Of a DNA stretch of 35,739 nucleotides, positions 3,001-8,918 are shown piece by piece. The DNA comes from Acidimicrobiia bacterium (GTDB taxonomy: Bacteria > Actinomycetota > Acidimicrobiia > Spongiisociales > ZC4RG35), in contig JAICNB010000028.1 in the NCBI GenBank assembly GCA_025928935.1, forward strand, positions 1-35,739. Reading direction: 5' to 3'. Both the position numbers and the translations under genes were made by a program. The notes under the pieces were generated by a model. It did no database searches. It was not told where the DNA came from and was given only the letters and a program-made list of their open reading frames with translations. The first letter of the stretch is position 1. Each line of letters starts with the position of its first letter.

Positions 3001-6000
3001 GGCGAGGGCGGAGAGACGACTGGAGAGAAGCTCCCGGCTGATCGCATCGTCGACTGCCTGCTGGTCGTGAAGGTGGCCCCGCACCGTCGCCAACAGGGCT
3101 TCGGCCGAGACCGCCAGGTCCTCGGCACCCTCCCTCGTCGCCATGGTGCGTGCGATGTCGGCCACCGTCTCGGCTTCGGCGAGGATCTCGGCCAGCCGAT
3201 CCGACCCCTGGGCTCCCCGGCTGCGCAGCGAGCCGAGAAACTCGACCAGGGCTCGATCGAGCTCCCGGGGCGATACGACCTCGATGCCCGCATCGAAAGC
3301 GACGGGGTCGGCCGCCTCCCGCAACAGCAGCGCGCTGTCGCGGATGCCTGCTGCCACCTCCGGGCCTGAGGCGACCTGGCGGAGGCGTTCACAGCCCTGG
3401 GATACCGCGAGGAGGTGGCCGGCCAGGTTGCCGCTGTCCACGGTCGACACGTATCTGGGCTCCAAGGGCTCACACGAGCTCGTGTCGTACCAGTTGAGGA
3501 AATGACCCTGATACCGCGCCAGCCGACTGAGCGTGGTGACCGTGTTTTCGAGCCTGGTCACTGTCTCTTCCAGCCCAATCCAGCCGAACTCCCGGGCCGA
3601 GAGCACCGCGAGCAGATAGAGCCCGATGTTGGTAGGAGACGTGCGGTGAGCGATCTGTGACAAGTCCTCTTGGAAATTGTCGGGTGGCAGCCAGTTCTCG
3701 TCGCTGGTCACGAATCTCTCGAAATAGCGCCAGGTGCGCCGGGCGATCAGCCGCAGCGCCTCCTGTTCCTGAACCGTGGGTGGGTCCGCCACCTCGGCAG
3801 GGCGTGGGGTGCTGACCAGGTGGGCGATGAGGGGAGCCAGCACCCACATCCCGGACCAGGCCAGAGCCGCCACCAACGCCTCAGGTTTGACGACTGCGGC
3901 CGCGGTGCTGCCCGCAATCCCGACCACCATCGAGGGGGACATCCGCCGGATGAAGCCCGTCAGCTCCAGGTCGAACTGCCGCTCCGCTTCCTCGGCCGTT
4001 ACCCACGTCAGCAATCCGCGACGAGTGAACATGAGGCGCCAAAGGGTCACCACGATGGCTTCGGTCATCCTCAGCGCTTGGTGGGCGAGGAATGCGGCCT
4101 GCAGAAGCGTCCGTCCCAGTGCCCTCGATGCATCCGTTCCCCAACGTCTCAGCCGCACCGCCCCCGGCGTGCTGGTCCGGCGCGGAATGATCCGCTCGAG
4201 CAGGGGCAGCATCCCGGGAAGCGCCAACGCGACGAGGATGAACGCGGTCCATGGCCAGACCGGGACCCCGGGCAGAATGAACGAGGCGATCAGGGTGAAG
4301 AGGGCGGCCGGCCCGCTGAGACTGCGGCGGAGATTGTCCACCATCTTGAGACGAGCCACGGGAGGCAGCGGTCCGTGAGTGCCGAGGATCCAAGGGAGGA
4401 GCTGCCAGTCGCCCCGGACCCAGCGATGCTGGCGTGACAGCGCCACCTCGTAGTGACTGGGGAACTCTTCGAACACCTCGACGTTGCTCACCAGACCGGC
4501 CCGGGCGAAGCTTCCTTCGAAGAGGTCGTGGCTGAGCAGGGCGTTCTCGGGGATTCGACCCTCCAACGCCGCCTCGAAGGCATCGATCTCATAGATCCCC
4601 TTGCCGGCATAGGACCCTTCGCCGAACAGGTCCTGGTACAGATCGCTGACGGCAGCGGCATAGGGGTCGATCCCGCCAGGCGGGAAGAAGACACGCTGGA
4701 AATAGCTGATACCGCTGGCTCTCAGGAAGGCGGTGACTCGCGGTTGCAAGACTCCATATCCCTCCACCACCCTGCCGAGTGATTCATCGACGCGAGCCCT
4801 GTTGAGTGGATGGGCGATCGTCGCCACCAGCCTCGTCGCCGCCCCCGGCGGGAGCCGGGCGTCGGCGTCGAGAGCGATCACAAAACGAACGCCTGCTGGC
4901 ACCCGGTCGGATGGGATGAAGCTGGTGTCGGAGGCTCCCCGGAGAAGCCGGTTGAGTTCGTGAAGCTTGCCCCGCTTGCGCTCCCAGCCCATGTGGAGTT
5001 CCTCGCCGGGATTGAACAATCGCCGGCGATGGAAGAGCAGGAACCGATCCGCCCCTCCCGGCCCCGGTCCGTGTCTCTCATTGAGTTGGAGCACGCCGTC
5101 GGCCGCCGCAGCCAGGAGCTCGGCGTCGTCGGCCAGCTCGGGACCTTCGGCGTCTCGCCAGTCGCTCACCAGGGCGAAGTGCAAATCGCCATCCGGATTG
5201 GCCAGATAGTGGACCTCGAGCCGTTCAACCAGCTCCTCGACCTGGTCGGGTCGCGTCAACAGGGCAGGGATCGCAACCAGCGTCCGCAGGTCTGCGGTCG
5301 GTCCATGCGCCAACGCCAGTGAAGGCAGCTCCTCGGGCCGGGTCAGGGCCGCGATGGCGCGGTTGACGAGGATCACGCCCATATCCGAAGCTGGGATCAA
5401 GGCCAGGCCGGCCATCACCCATCCCCATGGAGACCACTGCTCGACGGTGAGCAGGGGCAAAGCCAGGAGGAGAGCGCTGACCACGGCAACCGAGCTCAGG
5501 TACACGGCGGCCGCGTGCCTCCTGACGAATCGGGATGCAACCAGCCCGACACCGGGACGAAAGCCGATCCGAGCCTCGAGCGTGGTCCTGCCCTCTCCAA
5601 GCAGGTAGAAGCCGGGATCGCTCTGGCGACGATCGGCGAGTTGAGGGTCGGCCAGCCGGAGTGTGGTCTTCGTCACGTCGAGCTCGGAGGTCCCGGATCC
5701 CTTCGACAACTCTTCGATGGCGTGCCGATAACGATCCCGGGTGGCGAAGCTCATCTCGCTGTAGGAGCTCTCCGCGGCCAAGGCATGATCGACGAGGCTG
5801 ACGCCCTCCACGAAGTCGGCCCAGTCGAAGAAATTGACCTGACGGAGGCTGGTAACGATGTTGCGTACCGTGACGTTGGTGGCCGCTTGCCGACGATGGG
5901 TTTCGCCGACTATCTCGTCGGGTGACGTCCCCTGGGCGCTGAGACGATCCAGCAGCCAGGTGAGGCCCGGGGTCGTCTCCGGGTCCTGGTCGCGAAGACG

Positions 6001-6723
6001 CTGCAGCAGTTGGACGGCAAAGGGCTGTGGCAGCTTGGCGGGGCCGTAGCGGTCGAGGGCTGCCTGCGTCTCGCCGGGACGGCCGGCGCCGACGCCGAGA
6101 AGTCCGTCGGCGATCTCCTCGGCCTCCCTACGAAGTCTCCTGGCCCAAATGATCGACTCCGTCATCCGGCGCAGGTTCTCGATCAGGATCAGGCGAAGGG
6201 TGATGGGGATGGCCCACAACTCACCGATGGTCAGGGGCGCAACGTCCTGGTATGAAGCCACGAATCTGCGCAGCGCTTCGGGATCGAAGCGACTGTCCAG
6301 GTGCGAGACGTATGCCCACACGATCCCGTAAACCCGCGGGTAGCCGGCCAAATGACCACCGTCGAGCTTGGGAAGCTCGCGGTAGTAACTCGAAGGGAGG
6401 TTGTCCCGTATCTCGTGCAGCTGGCTCTCCACGAGATGGAAGTTGTCCACCAGCCATTCCGCGGCGGGGGTGAGCAGTGCCTCTTCCCGGATCGCCTTGG
6501 ACAACTCGCGGTATGAGGAGAGAAGAACCTCACCGTTGTCCACCAGTCGCCGGGAGATGGGGCGGAGTCTCCCGTGGCGTTCACTCAGTTCCTGGGCTTC
6601 GGCGAGACTCCGCCCATGCTCCTCCAGCCGTTCGACGCTGAACAGCTCGGCCCGGATCGGCTCGTCGATCGGCTCGTATCCCGAGCCTCGGGTGGCTGGC
6701 ACGATCGCACAATACGTGAGCAT
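1..6723 (-). CDS. NdvB-type cyclic beta-1,2-glucan synthase-like protein (GT84/GH94), C-terminus beyond window
   Basis: A single open frame runs leftward from ATG 6723 (alternative GTG 6729; in-frame TAG at 6771-6769) to base 1, giving 2241 residues of a family usually about 2800 long. In NdvB proteins a membrane GT84 domain polymerises UDP-glucose, a glycoamylase-like domain follows, and C-terminal GH94 modules phosphorolyse the chain. Visible here are an N-terminal helical region, membrane segments near residues 405-455, a glycosyltransferase core with the Asp-Ala-Asp metal motif (residues 619-621, bases 4861-4869) and RQHRWVRGDWQ near residue 765, more membrane segments to about residue 960, then SWSGSMFEYLMP near residue 1320 in the glycoamylase-like part. 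From about residue 1500 the sequence is beta-rich and GH94-like, ending in an FLGRYG segment at the edge. The GH94 catalytic core lies outside the window. No frameshift is apparent. The family call is firm; product linkage and cyclisation are inferred. Confidence 0.93.
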   Translation of the reverse strand, partial: MLTYCAIVPATRGSGYEPIDEPIRAELFSVERLEEHGRSLAEAQELSERHGRLRPISRRLVDNGEVLLSSYRELSKAIREEALLTPAAEWLVDNFHLVESQLHEIRDNLPSSYYRELPKLDGGHLAGYPRVYGIVWAYVSHLDSRFDPEALRRFVASYQDVAPLTIGELWAIPITLRLILIENLRRMTESIIWARRLRREAEEIADGLLGVGAGRPGETQAALDRYGPAKLPQPFAVQLLQRLRDQDPETTPGLTWLLDRLSAQGTSPDEIVGETHRRQAATNVTVRNIVTSLRQVNFFDWADFVEGVSLVDHALAAESSYSEMSFATRDRYRHAIEELSKGSGTSELDVTKTTLRLADPQLADRRQSDPGFYLLGEGRTTLEARIGFRPGVGLVASRFVRRHAAAVYLSSVAVVSALLLALPLLTVEQWSPWGWVMAGLALIPASDMGVILVNRAIAALTRPEELPSLALAHGPTADLRTLVAIPALLTRPDQVEELVERLEVHYLANPDGDLHFALVSDWRDAEGPELADDAELLAAAADGVLQLNERHGPGPGGADRFLLFHRRRLFNPGEELHMGWERKRGKLHELNRLLRGASDTSFIPSDRVPAGVRFVIALDADARLPPGAATRLVATIAHPLNRARVDESLGRVVEGYGVLQPRVTAFLRASGISYFQRVFFPPGGIDPYAAAVSDLYQDLFGEGSYAGKGIYEIDAFEAALEGRIPENALLSHDLFEGSFARAGLVSNVEVFEEFPSHYEVALSRQHRWVRGDWQLLPWILGTHGPLPPVARLKMVDNLRRSLSGPAALFTLIASFILPGVPVWPWTAFILVALALPGMLPLLERIIPRRTSTPGAVRLRRWGTDASRALGRTLLQAAFLAHQALRMTEAIVVTLWRLMFTRRGLLTWVTAEEAERQFDLELTGFIRRMSPSMVVGIAGSTAAAVVKPEALVAALAWSGMWVLAPLIAHLVSTPRPAEVADPPTVQEQEALRLIARRTWRYFERFVTSDENWLPPDNFQEDLSQIAHRTSPTNIGLYLLAVLSAREFGWIGLEETVTRLENTVTTLSRLARYQGHFLNWYDTSSCEPLEPRYVSTVDSGNLAGHLLAVSQGCERLRQVASGPEVAAGIRDSALLLREAADPVAFDAGIEVVSPRELDRALVEFLGSLRSRGAQGSDRLAEILAEAETVADIARTMATREGAEDLAVSAEALLATVRGHLHDQQAVDDAISRELLSSRLSALADATAGLAADMDFSFLMNRDNKLLAVGYRVGENALDQSHYDLLASEARLASFVGIAKGDLPPSHWFRLGRSMTPMGAESALISWSGSMFEYLMPLLVMRSPPESILETTYRAVVRRQIEYGNERRIPWGISEAAYAARDIHLVYQYRAFGVPGLGFERGLSEDLVVAPYATLLATMVEPGDAVTNLVRLNSLGAQGRYGYYESLDFTPSRLPEDGESVLVRAYMAHHQAMSLISVTNVIFAGLCRDLFHSDPWVRAAELLLHERVPRDVEVARPRAEEVAESAHPLEEAKGVVRRISSPHSPGPAIHALSNGRLSTVITAAGSGYSQWQGLAVNRWREDATRDNFGSYFFIKDGAGRAWSAGYQPTLAEPDSYQVAFSEDKAEISRRDGNISTTLTVVVSAEDDAEVRRVSLTNLGSVAREVEVTSYAEVVLASARADAAHPAFSNLFVQTEVVTGRDALLASRRPRSDEEETVWAGHVLAVTGEVVGGIQYETDRARFLGRGNQVHHAAAVDRPLSNTAGRVLDPVFSLRRKVRIEPGATAHLDFTTVVAPTRDEALDLVDKFSETAAFERISTLAWTQAQVRLHHLRIEPDQAHIFQQLAGSLIYFDPALRAPPAPTTMSSVSRDGLWRHGISGDFPIVLVRIDRPEERGLVRDLLRAQEYWRTKGLVADLVIINEEAESYAQELHGAIEELIRESGHLVGQEPDGGVFVLNGPLLTIEDRTTLHAAARAVLLSHHGTLADQLARRPTKELAPTIRAKASAPDLTGGSHPRPDREFHNGLGGFAGDGSEYVVVLGEGQSTPAPWINVVANRRFGFCVSESGSGYSWSENSRENQLTPWSNDPVSDRPGEVLYVRDEESGEVWGPTALPIRDDAFGYLARHGPGYSEFEHRSRGIALHLHQTVPLEDPIKISRLRIRNLTGRRRRLSITAYVEWVLGTTRAVSPMQIVTERDEETGAVLARNPWNVDFGDRVAFADLGTGEVTITGNRAEFLGRYGSVDD

Positions 6724-7036
6724 CGACACCGTGAACTCGACTGACGAGAGTCGCTGAGAATTGGTTAGCTACTCGAAATGGGCCGCTCGCCGAAGGGGCA
6801 GACAAGTCGAGGAGACTCGGTGGCGATGTTCAGCCTTGACCTACCCCCCGGCCAAGTTGATGGTCGACCTCCAGACCGTTGCGTTGCCGGATACCAGCGT
6901 CACCTCCATGTGAAGCTCGTAGCCAGGTCGCTTCGGGCCGGTCGCTCTTGACACAGGGCCGGTGGCCCGTAGGGTTGCATGAACGGGTGTTTTTCCTGTC
7001 GGCGTGACTTGGGAGGCATGAGCCGAGGAGGACTCA
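6724..7036. other. Divergent intergenic region
   Basis: This 313-base gap separates the leftward NdvB-like gene from the rightward metalloprotease gene. The right part carries a good promoter for the protease cassette, annotated separately. I see no convincing promoter for the leftward gene, no RNA gene and no small ORF with a good ribosome binding site in the rest. Confidence 0.6.
6948..6975 (+). promoter_or_regulatory. Sigma70-type promoter for the metalloprotease cassette
   Basis: A perfect TTGACA (6948-6953) is followed after 16 bases by TAGGGT (6970-6975), an actinobacterial-style -10 box. A transcript starting near 6982 would have a leader of about 55 bases before GTG 7037, which is preceded by GAGGAGG at 7024-7030. 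Confidence 0.6.
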
Positions 7037-7801
7037 GTGCCTGTCTCGTGTGGCCGTTATGTGGATGCCCTCTGGTGTAACGAGGAACGCTCCAACGCCT
7101 GGGTCTGGCTCCGCCATAGCGGTTGGCGCAAGCTGGATGATCGCAACGACGACGCCACCATCAATCTGCTCGCGATCGCGGCCGAGGCCAAGTCGAAGGG
7201 CCGATCCGTCTCGGTGCACGAGGAGTTCCGCAGCGGAACCTGGCGGATCACCGAGATCGCAGACTTCCACACCGGCACCCTGGGGCCGACCTTCAACGTC
7301 AGCTTTGCGATGTCCGAGTGCATCTACGGCTGGACCGCGGCGTTCGACCAGAGGGGCACGACCATCACGGTGCGGATTCGGCTCGTCCCCGACGCCGGGA
7401 TCACTGCGGCGACCATGGCGACACTGCGCACCCGTTGGCAGACCGGGATCGAGTCCAAATGGAGCAATCGATTCGGCTGCTGCATCTCCCCCGATTGTGT
7501 CGGAGGATGCGCCCTCAACTTCCGGGTCGAATGGGTCAACACCAACGAACATCACACTGTCAGGGTTCGCCAAGGCCCGGCCGGGACCAACATGACCACC
7601 TGGGATACCTCCGATTCCGGAGATGTCGCCTCCCACGAGTTCGGCCACATGCTTGGTTATCCCGACGAATACACCTCCAATCTCTGCCCCTCTCGCAGTC
7701 CGGTGAACACCGGGACTGTGATGGACGACAACACCGAAGTGGTGCGGAGGCTGTGCACCCCATTCTGCGACCGGCTCGGGCAGCCCACTTACACAGTGTG
7801 A
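7037..7801 (+). CDS. Zinc metalloprotease, HExxHxxGxxD type, with N-terminal Trp-rich domain
   Basis: The GTG start has a strong Shine-Dalgarno (GAGGAGG, 6 bases upstream). The 254-residue protein carries HEFGHMLGYPDEY at residues 200-212: His200, Glu201 and His204 with Asp210 form an HExxHxxGxxD zinc site like that of snapalysin (M7), and Met229 in a GTVMDD segment could be the metzincin Met-turn. There is no signal peptide or membrane segment, so it looks cytoplasmic or exported by a non-Sec route. Cysteines are numerous (C148, C149, C154, C158, C217, C240, C244), which suggests disulfides or a second metal site. Residues about 10-62 match almost the whole 72-residue protein encoded at 8341, so this N-terminal part is a separate domain. 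It is first in a cassette with three small genes. Protease identity is well supported; substrate and role are unknown. Confidence 0.82.
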   Translation: MPVSCGRYVDALWCNEERSNAWVWLRHSGWRKLDDRNDDATINLLAIAAEAKSKGRSVSVHEEFRSGTWRITEIADFHTGTLGPTFNVSFAMSECIYGWTAAFDQRGTTITVRIRLVPDAGITAATMATLRTRWQTGIESKWSNRFGCCISPDCVGGCALNFRVEWVNTNEHHTVRVRQGPAGTNMTTWDTSDSGDVASHEFGHMLGYPDEYTSNLCPSRSPVNTGTVMDDNTEVVRRLCTPFCDRLGQPTYTV

Positions 7802-7808
7802 GGACGCG

Positions 7809-8327
7809 ATGAACGACAACGAGAAGGCCACACCGGGAGGAATACCTCAGGATCCCACCCCTCTTGCCGCCAAGGTCGGGGCGGGCCGTGTCGCCCCAGA
7901 AGACGTGTCCAGTCTTCGAGTCACCCTGGACATAGAGGGAGGGTCGGCCGACGATCGGTACGAGTTCCACTTCAGGGGGTCGGGCAGCGGCGACACCCAG
8001 GTGGAGGTCAAGAACCGTCTGCGACAGCTGGAGATCCTTCCTAAATTCGGTGAAGTGAGCGCCGACGAAATGATTGACGTGTTCACCAACCTCGACGTCA
8101 GCCAGATGAGCGTTGTCGGCCAGAGCTTGCCACCGATCCCACCGGACAGCACTGTGGGCATCCTCACCGTCTCAGACGGCCGGCAAGAGGCCACGGTCGT
8201 CTTCATGGCCGACGAAGGTCAGGCGAAGGCGGCCGGTTTCGAGCTTCCCGAGGACCTACGCAGGGCGGTGGACAAGATCTTCGAGATCGGTGCCAGACAA
8301 GTCGATCTCGAAAGTGTGAGGCCTTGA
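7809..8327 (+). CDS. Unknown 172-residue acidic protein; possible protease inhibitor or partner (emfourin-like layout)
   Basis: It starts 7 bases after the protease stop with a GAGG ribosome site, so it is translated from the same message. No family is firmly recognised. It has a disordered 30-residue N-terminus, then a beta segment (RVTLDIEGG), an alternating strand/helix region, a proline-rich turn (PPIPPDS), a hairpin (ILTVSDG then EATVVFM) and a final helix. The last part, two strands followed by a helix beginning LPEDLRRAVD, recalls emfourin-type inhibitors that are encoded beside M4 metalloproteases. That resemblance is impressionistic. The protein is soluble, acidic, cysteine-free and lacks a signal peptide. 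Position next to the protease suggests an inhibitor, chaperone or substrate. Confidence 0.6.
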   Translation: MNDNEKATPGGIPQDPTPLAAKVGAGRVAPEDVSSLRVTLDIEGGSADDRYEFHFRGSGSGDTQVEVKNRLRQLEILPKFGEVSADEMIDVFTNLDVSQMSVVGQSLPPIPPDSTVGILTVSDGRQEATVVFMADEGQAKAAGFELPEDLRRAVDKIFEIGARQVDLESVRP

Positions 8328-8340
8328 AAGGAGATACTCG

Positions 8341-8559
8341 ATGGCCTGGCTAAACAACAAGAGGGTCATAGCCTTGTGGGGAAACTGGGAGGATTCCAAC
8401 GTCTGGGGCTGGATCGACGGCGCGTGGCGCAAGTTCCACGACGACAACGACGACGCCACCACCAACTTTGCCATCTTGGCCGCACACGCCAAGGGTGACA
8501 ATCGGAATGTGAACGTGCGGATCGATGGTGATCGAGTCAAGGAGATGTACGTCTGGTGA
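8341..8559 (+). CDS. 72-residue free-standing copy of the metalloprotease N-terminal domain
   Basis: AAAGGAG lies 8 bases before the ATG, the best ribosome site of the cassette. The whole protein is one domain that aligns without large gaps to residues 10-62 of the protease at 7037. Shared positions include ALW, SN.W.W, WRK, NDDAT, an alanine-rich helix ending AK, and a final R.V.V strand. It is Trp- and Asp-rich with no signal peptide. A free copy of a protease domain could act as a competitive binding partner, an inhibitor, an oligomerisation unit or a targeting tag. Its function is unknown; the homology is read directly from the two translations. Confidence 0.75.
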   Translation: MAWLNNKRVIALWGNWEDSNVWGWIDGAWRKFHDDNDDATTNFAILAAHAKGDNRNVNVRIDGDRVKEMYVW

Positions 8560-8918
8560 GCGCCAAGGCTGATCGAGGCCGGGGTGAAGGGGCCCGAGGC
8601 TCACCGGCCCCCTTCCGGCAGGAAGACATCGAGCGGCTGGCAGCAGGCGAGCTGCCGGACGAGGTCGTCACCAGGATCCTCGAATCCGGGCAACCCCCGG
8701 CCAGGCCTTCACGTGTAACCAAAGGAAAGAAGCTGGCCCCGGTTGAGCTGACGCCCGAGGAGATCGAAGCTCTGGCCGGAGGTGAGCCGATCTCCGAGCA
8801 GCTGGCCGGAAGGTTCGAAGAGGCCGCCAAACTGGACATGAACCGGAAGCGCGCCGCCGGAACCGGGGCGGAGAGGCCGGACGTGACGCCCCCAGGAGAG
8901 AAGCGAACGAAGCGCTGA
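8556..8918 (+). CDS. Unknown 120-residue charged protein with two helical repeats
   Basis: The GTG start overlaps the previous stop (GTGA), indicating translational coupling. The protein is highly charged and low in hydrophobics, with basic or disordered ends. Two copies of a short helical motif are visible: residues about 20-45 (E.IE.LAAGE) and 65-90 (EEIEALAGGE), joined by a proline/lysine linker. It has no cysteine, membrane segment or signal peptide. The layout suggests an adaptor or linker with two peptide-like binding helices. I do not recognise a family. Cassette membership with the metalloprotease is the only functional clue. Confidence 0.6.
   Translation: MSAKADRGRGEGARGSPAPFRQEDIERLAAGELPDEVVTRILESGQPPARPSRVTKGKKLAPVELTPEEIEALAGGEPISEQLAGRFEEAAKLDMNRKRAAGTGAERPDVTPPGEKRTKR

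What the first reader, a model, noticed from the sequence alone, without database searches (positions are those of the whole stretch)
7037..8918. Metalloprotease cassette with a free-standing copy of the protease's own N-terminal domain
The 72-residue protein at 8341 aligns along its length with residues about 10-62 of the zinc protease at 7037 (shared ALW, SN.W.W, WRK, NDDAT, AA.AK, R.V.V). The four genes are tightly spaced, share one strong promoter, and none encodes a signal peptide. A protease plus a detached copy of its own domain and two further small proteins looks like a self-regulating, toxin/antidote-like or cargo-type module. I do not recognise this arrangement.
Basis: partly seen in the sequence, partly recalled or inferred. 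Interest (0 to 1): 0.75.

Follow-up and report, generated by a model that had tools for sequence, protein, structure and literature searches.

The report
Protease cassette with B-subunit-like module
A bacterial gene set makes a protein-cutting enzyme, a probable inhibitor of it, and a small free-standing copy of the enzyme's own attachment module; the same plan recurs with two unrelated kinds of protease in other bacteria, so it looks like a reusable kit for a restrained, targeted protease.

Summary
The 72-aa protein matches residues 8-60 of the protease (51% identity, E 5e-11), and the four-gene order recurs in a Luteitalea MAG. The protease is an intact HExxHxxGxxD zinc peptidase distantly related to M6/M7. 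The shared domain is predicted to be a small OB-fold; its best structural matches are AB5-toxin B subunits. It also sits on C1 papain-like peptidases (three loci, each with a free-standing copy and an I42 chagasin-type inhibitor beside it) and on one S8 subtilase. In other members of the zinc-protease family a lectin or FG-GAP propeller, or a separate fibre-like gene, takes its place, and gene 2 is fused to the protease or adjacent. Gene 2 is therefore most likely the protease's inhibitor (emfourin-like by weak profile comparison only; its model has a Mago-nashi-like fold). The detached domain is more likely a binding or assembly subunit than the antidote. No protein has a signal peptide and the genome shows no contractile sheath, so release and target are unknown; an intracellular role is the main rival. 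No described system known to me combines swappable peptidases, a tethered plus free OB module and a class-matched inhibitor. All mechanism is inferred.

The parts
6948..6975 (+). promoter-like element TTGACA-N16-TAGGGT
   Evidence: read in the sequence; below the threshold of the strict scan
7037..7801 (+). gene 1: 254-aa zinc metallopeptidase with N-terminal OB domain
   Evidence: ORF; weak M6/M7 matches at the active site; 73% identical orthologue in Luteitalea, dN/dS 0.08
7058..7219 (+). OB-like domain inside gene 1, homologous to gene 3
   Evidence: tblastn E 4.7e-11, shuffles
7634..7672 (+). HEFGHMLGYPDEY zinc site (HExxHxxGxxD)
   Evidence: invariant H, E, H, G, D in alignment A1
7809..8327 (+). 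gene 2: 172-aa predicted inhibitor of gene 1
   Evidence: adjacent or fused in relatives; emfourin profile P 1.6e-4 to 2.9e-5; Mago-like model
8341..8559 (+). gene 3: free-standing OB protein, 72 aa
   Evidence: model and fold search; homologues next to C1 peptidases
8556..8918 (+). gene 4: 120-aa low-complexity protein with two diverged repeats, role unknown
   Evidence: ORF; 28% identical counterpart in Luteitalea, counterpart in Actinomadura

Best explanation
A modular 'restrained peptidase' cassette. Gene 1 is an active zinc endopeptidase carrying a B-subunit-like OB module. Gene 2 is its dedicated inhibitor, made in the same cytoplasm and holding the enzyme silent in the producer. The free OB protein (gene 3) is the stand-alone version of the same module; it most likely co-assembles with the enzyme-tethered copy and/or binds the same ligand (a glycan or surface receptor), so that the complex docks on a target where the enzyme, freed from its inhibitor, cuts. 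Shown: the genes, predicted folds, intact active site, recurrence with C1 (plus I42) and S8 peptidases, replacement of the OB module by lectin-like modules. Inferred: inhibition by gene 2, OB oligomerisation or ligand binding, action outside the producer. Release is unexplained (no signal peptide, no sheath), perhaps by lysis; gene 4 is unexplained. Separate estimates: gene 2 is the inhibitor about 0.7; the OB is a binding/assembly module about 0.75; the target is another cell about 0.45.
For: OB model best matched by AB5 B subunits, Z 10.6 over 72 of 72 residues. Same domain plus a free copy beside an I42 inhibitor on C1 peptidases in Deinococcus aetherius, G1415 and G1416, and on an S8 peptidase in G1418. 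I42 inhibits C1 peptidases (PMC7863939). Gene 2 fused or adjacent to the protease core in other lineages, emfourin-like profile with controls. The OB position is taken by a beta-propeller lectin in Georgenia (NCBIfam 2.4e-29) and by FG-GAP repeats in Nocardioides. Distant relatives carry the eCIS core, PAAR neighbours or signal peptides.
Against: No signal peptide on any component and no sheath or eCIS core match in the genome. The AB5 likeness is fold only, 8-16% identity, and other OB proteins (SilF, CipA) match about as well; only one of five AF2 models was confident. Gene 2 does not match Pfam Emfourin and emfourin's structure aligns only at background level (Z 3.5). Gene 2 is missing in Actinomadura, though the genes there are frameshifted in the record. 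In G1415 and G1416 the I42 gene is convergent, not in the same operon.
Confidence: 0.5

Rival explanations
1. Intracellular conflict or regulatory module. The protease never leaves the cell: gene 2 keeps it off and it is recruited or activated through homotypic interaction of the tethered and free OB domains, in the manner of effector-associated domains (EADs) of prokaryotic conflict systems.
For: No signal peptides; a small non-enzymatic domain repeated on adjacent genes matches the EAD coupling principle (PMC7159879); the Deinococcus cassette is followed by caspase-family genes; protealysin-emfourin is an intracellular protease-inhibitor pair (PMC9505478).
Against: No NTPase or other core component in the cassette; a lectin can replace the OB module in relatives; several distant relatives have signal peptides or secretion-linked partners.
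Confidence: 0.28
2. Cargo of a contractile injection system or type VI-like machine.
For: Distant relatives are fused to the eCIS core domain (G092) or lie beside a PAAR gene (G582, G550, G574); a Tle1-like gene lies near the S8-OB gene.
Against: No PF04984 sheath in the window's genome, Luteitalea, Georgenia, G343 or G028; where present in other carriers it lies on other contigs or away from the cassette. No eCIS core in the own genome (weak because the control genomes also gave none).
Confidence: 0.12
3. The OB domain is an inhibitory pro-domain of the protease, and the free copy is a trans-acting inhibitor or chaperone.
For: The pro-domain of protein-glutaminase has a similar fold (Z 9.2); N-terminal position in gene 1; a free copy is kept in every metalloprotease (OB type) and C1 cassette found.
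Against: On C1 and S8 peptidases the same domain is C-terminal, and one domain would have to block three unrelated active sites; the C1 peptidases already have I42 beside them; the close homologues L005 and L007-L010 lack the OB domain altogether.
Confidence: 0.07

Closest known systems
Protealysin-emfourin operon (M4 peptidase + PF20242 inhibitor)
   Same: Metallopeptidase without signal peptide followed by a small inhibitor gene; inhibitor domain sometimes fused to the protease C-terminus (L030); weak profile similarity of gene 2 with GG and PD motifs in register.
   Different: Different peptidase family; gene 2 does not match PF20242, and its model aligns with emfourin only at background level; emfourin operons have no OB module.
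AB5 toxins (e.g. subtilase cytotoxin SubAB, LT-II)
   Same: A catalytic part combined with small OB-fold subunits of the same topology.
   Different: No signal peptides; here one OB domain is covalently part of the enzyme; pentamer formation untested; sequence similarity to B subunits not detectable; an inhibitor gene is present.
C1 peptidase / I42 chagasin-family pairs
   Same: Peptidase next to an inhibitor of its own class; in three loci with the same OB domain and a free copy.
   Different: Unrelated peptidase and inhibitor folds.
Effector-associated domains (EADs, PMC7159879)
   Same: Small non-enzymatic domain shared by adjacent genes and fused to diverse peptidases.
   Different: No NTPase core in the cassette; the OB domain is not a described EAD as far as I could find; an inhibitor is present.
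Peptidases M6 (immune inhibitor A) and M7 (snapalysin)
   Same: HExxHxxGxxD zinc site; best weak matches.
   Different: Those are exported by signal peptide; similarity here is limited to the active-site region and falls below family cut-offs.

Membership tests
Peptidase M6/M7 | HExxHxxGxxD zinc motif with downstream Met | tested here: met
   invariant in alignment A1; aligned with InhA and snapalysin
Peptidase M6/M7 | curated Pfam/NCBIfam score cut-off | tested here: not met
   PF05547 21.4 vs 22 bits; TIGR03296 25.6 vs 110.8; snapalysin 16 vs 300
Emfourin family (gene 2) | match to PF20242 | tested here: not met
   no match in any of 9 gene-2 relatives
Emfourin family (gene 2) | remote profile similarity with GG and PD motifs in register | tested here: met
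   P 1.6e-4 local, 2.9e-5 global; controls above 0.05
Emfourin family (gene 2) | same structure as emfourin 6zyg | tested here: inconclusive
   Z 3.5, same as unrelated rows; Mago nashi Z 10.7
Emfourin family (gene 2) | inhibits its partner metallopeptidase | not testable with these tools
   needs an assay
AB5 toxin | OB-fold B-type subunit | tested here: met
   fold of the predicted model; no sequence match
AB5 toxin | signal peptides on both subunits | tested here: not met
   hydropathy of N-termini
AB5 toxin | pentameric B ring around a non-covalent A subunit | not testable with these tools
   no multimer prediction; one OB copy is fused to the enzyme
EAD-coupled conflict systems | same small domain on adjacent genes | tested here: met
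EAD-coupled conflict systems | NTPase-centred core system in the operon | tested here: not met
   only four genes in the cassette, none with an NTPase match
Contractile injection cargo | sheath in the carrier genome | tested here: not met
   no PF04984 in the window's genome, 98% complete

The most novel reading that the evidence does not exclude
A previously unrecognised class of AB-type protease systems assembled in the cytoplasm: interchangeable peptidases (metzincin-like, papain-like, subtilisin-like), each tethered to one B-subunit-like OB domain that joins free OB subunits in a ring, and each held silent by an inhibitor matched to its catalytic class (gene 2 type, I42, possibly I9-like), released without a signal peptide.
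Probability: 0.25. Interest if true: 0.85.

Novelty: new variant of a known kind. Interest (0 to 1): 0.62.

Why it matters
If right, it is a plug-and-play protease system whose parts are predictable from gene order: the same docking module with different cutters, each with its own safety catch. It offers a way to find new protease inhibitors (look next to an OB-tagged peptidase), links free-living environmental bacteria to an AB-toxin-like architecture, and gives gene 2, a bacterial protein with a Mago-nashi-like predicted fold, a testable function.

Tried and rejected
Recent duplication: rejected. Free and fused copies are old paralogues within the metalloprotease cassettes (clade support 96/96); the copies fused to C1 peptidases sit elsewhere in the tree (short alignment, several open forks).

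Phage or plasmid mobility: no match to the 72-aa protein or the protease in phages or viral contigs; plasmid hits only in Paraburkholderia and, weakly, Streptomyces atratus (protease core) and Deinococcus (domain).

Known defence system: no PADLOC match of note.

Gene 2 as a Mago nashi homologue by sequence: no support (P 0.38; only near-identical animal Mago sequences were available for the profile), so the match is reported as fold only.

I9 inhibitor near the S8 gene: the 92-aa neighbour resembles a subtilisin propeptide end ('VETAYKKP') by eye, but has no Pfam match and is not significant against the S8 propeptide region (186 of 1000 shuffles as good).

Weak domain hits G159 (E 0.0097, stops inside) and G780 (E 5e-5) were not counted as members.

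Solved-structure sequence search with the Georgenia propeller and the fibre-like protein gave nothing; NCBIfam later identified the propeller as a lectin.

Full report
OBSERVATION. The 72-aa protein and protease residues 8-60 are homologous (E 4.7e-11; SW 129 vs shuffled 31.9 +/- 5.8). A TTGACA-N16-TAGGGT element ends about 60 nt before the start codon, though the strict scan does not list it.

RECURRENCE. A Luteitalea MAG (L004) has the same four genes in the same order: protease 73% identical, gene 2 35%, free domain 74%, gene 4 28%. Protease dN/dS is 0.08 (synonymous sites near saturation, so rough); gene 2 and gene 4 evolve much faster. Actinomadura macra (L006) has protease, free domain and gene 4 but no gene 2, and its protease and domain genes are frameshifted in the record. 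The domain was not found in the two other sampled members of the window's genus or in the family members listed, and was found in very few genomes overall, a patchy distribution that suggests horizontal transfer.

PROTEASE. The catalytic core carries HExxHxxGxxD and an invariant Met; it resembles M6 (InhA) and M7 (snapalysin) only around the active site and falls below their cut-offs. Close relatives fall into three arrangements. (A) OB domain + protease, gene 2, free OB, gene 4 (window, Luteitalea; Actinomadura without gene 2). (B) One polypeptide of N-terminal propeller + protease + gene-2 domain (Georgenia, Nocardioides, Umezawaea, G343); the Georgenia propeller matches NCBIfam 'beta propeller lectin' at 2.4e-29 and the Nocardioides one FG-GAP repeats. 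(C) Separate genes for a fibre-like protein, gene 2 and protease (Thermodesulfovibrionia L005, Paraburkholderia plasmid L010, G028). The constant partner is gene 2; the variable partner is a binding-type module. More distant relatives are fused to eCIS_core, carry peptidoglycan-binding repeats, lie two genes from a PAAR gene, sit inside very large proteins, or have signal peptides by eye.

THE SHARED DOMAIN. AlphaFold2 on five sequences gives beta1-beta2-beta3-alpha-beta4-beta5 (pLDDT 87 for the best model, 60-69 for the others). Foldseek and VIA-align rank AB5-toxin B subunits first (LT-IIb E 1.3e-3; Z 10.6, 72 of 72 residues), with SilF, CipA and the pro-domain of protein-glutaminase also matching. 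This is a fold match; sequence search of the PDB finds no B subunit. A tblastn search then found the domain at the C-terminus of a C1 papain-like peptidase on a Deinococcus aetherius plasmid (E 2e-3). The next gene encodes a free-standing copy and the one after an I42 chagasin-family inhibitor (Pfam 1.4e-21), followed by caspase-family genes. An enlarged profile found the same trio in two genomes of the window's own order (G1415, G1416; I42 at 3.7e-21 and 2.5e-21, convergent with the peptidase genes) and a C-terminal copy on an S8 subtilase in a third (G1418). I42 proteins inhibit papain-like C1 peptidases (PMC7863939). So one domain is attached to three unrelated peptidases, at the N-terminus of one and the C-terminus of the other two; in two of the three cases a free copy and an inhibitor (known or inferred) are next door. 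A small tree puts free and fused copies of the metalloprotease cassettes together (96/96) and the C1-fused copies apart (88/88), consistent with independent fusions, with the caution that the alignment is short.

GENE 2. By analogy with I42, gene 2 should be the inhibitor of the metalloprotease. Independent support: it is fused to the protease C-terminus in type B, as an emfourin domain is fused to an M4-like protease in L030. Profile-profile comparison with emfourins gives P 1.6e-4 (local) and 2.9e-5 (global) over the whole emfourin domain with the GG and PD motifs in register, while reversed and unrelated controls give P above 0.05. Against: no Pfam Emfourin match, and the gene-2 model (pLDDT 82) is closest to Mago nashi (Foldseek 3e-6, Z 10.7), with emfourin 6zyg and sermetstatin at Z 3.5, the background level. 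I therefore call it a predicted inhibitor that works like emfourin, not a member of that family.

MECHANISM. Most likely the protease is made in the cytoplasm, held off by gene 2, and docked through the OB module, with the free OB protein as additional subunit(s) or as a partner for the same ligand. That the OB position can be taken by a lectin points to surface binding and hence to action on another cell. There is no signal peptide and no contractile sheath in the genome, so release is unexplained, and an intracellular EAD-like role (PMC7159879) remains the main rival. Shown: genes, homologies, predicted folds, gene-order recurrence. Inferred: inhibition, assembly, ligand, target, release. 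Gene 4 has no assigned role.

NOVELTY. No Pfam, NCBIfam, PHROGs or PADLOC model usefully covers the OB domain or gene 2, and literature searches found no description of the combination; only open-licence papers were searched. Protease-inhibitor operons and AB toxins are known; swappable peptidases sharing a tethered plus free OB module with class-matched inhibitors are, to my knowledge, not described.

Noticed in passing
window 7809-8327 (model m32454b1f002f): Gene 2's predicted fold is closest to the eukaryotic exon-junction protein Mago nashi (Z 10.7 over 134 residues), with no sequence support for homology.
   Followed up: partly
window 8556-8918; L006 6955-7362: Gene 4 holds two diverged repeats (EDIERLAAGE / EEIEALAGGE) in a low-complexity chain; a similar doubling is seen in the Actinomadura counterpart. 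The 181-aa protein beside the S8-OB gene (L065 3461-4009, minus) has its own repeats (PDLPxEML).
   Followed up: no
L039, L040, L041 (G582, G550, G574): A distant relative of the protease follows a PAAR protein and a 255-262-aa protein of unknown family in three Acidobacteriota-phylum genomes: a candidate type VI-like effector set.
   Followed up: partly
L021 6243-7796 (minus): A distant relative of the protease is fused behind an eCIS core domain (PF13699, 2.2e-27) near other eCIS-core-like genes.
   Followed up: partly
L056 7079-12216: Two caspase-family genes follow the C1-OB / free OB / I42 genes on the Deinococcus plasmid; whether they belong to the cassette is unknown.
   Followed up: no
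L065 6098-8505: A Tle1-like phospholipase gene (PF09994, 1.9e-74) and another large gene lie divergent from the S8-OB gene.
   Followed up: no
L006 6001-7057: The Actinomadura macra cassette lacks gene 2, and both its protease and free-domain genes are broken by frameshifts in the record: either draft errors or decay after loss of the inhibitor.
   Followed up: no
window 4702-6768 (minus): A long open frame diverges from the cassette upstream; it looks like a cyclic beta-glucan synthase by eye but has no Pfam match.
   Followed up: partly
L005 4306-5310; L010 10369-11223: Fibre-like proteins beside type C protease genes share a conserved C-terminal domain (DCAE...VGVVSGAG...GLIPILVAL) that no Pfam or NCBIfam model covers.
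   Followed up: partly
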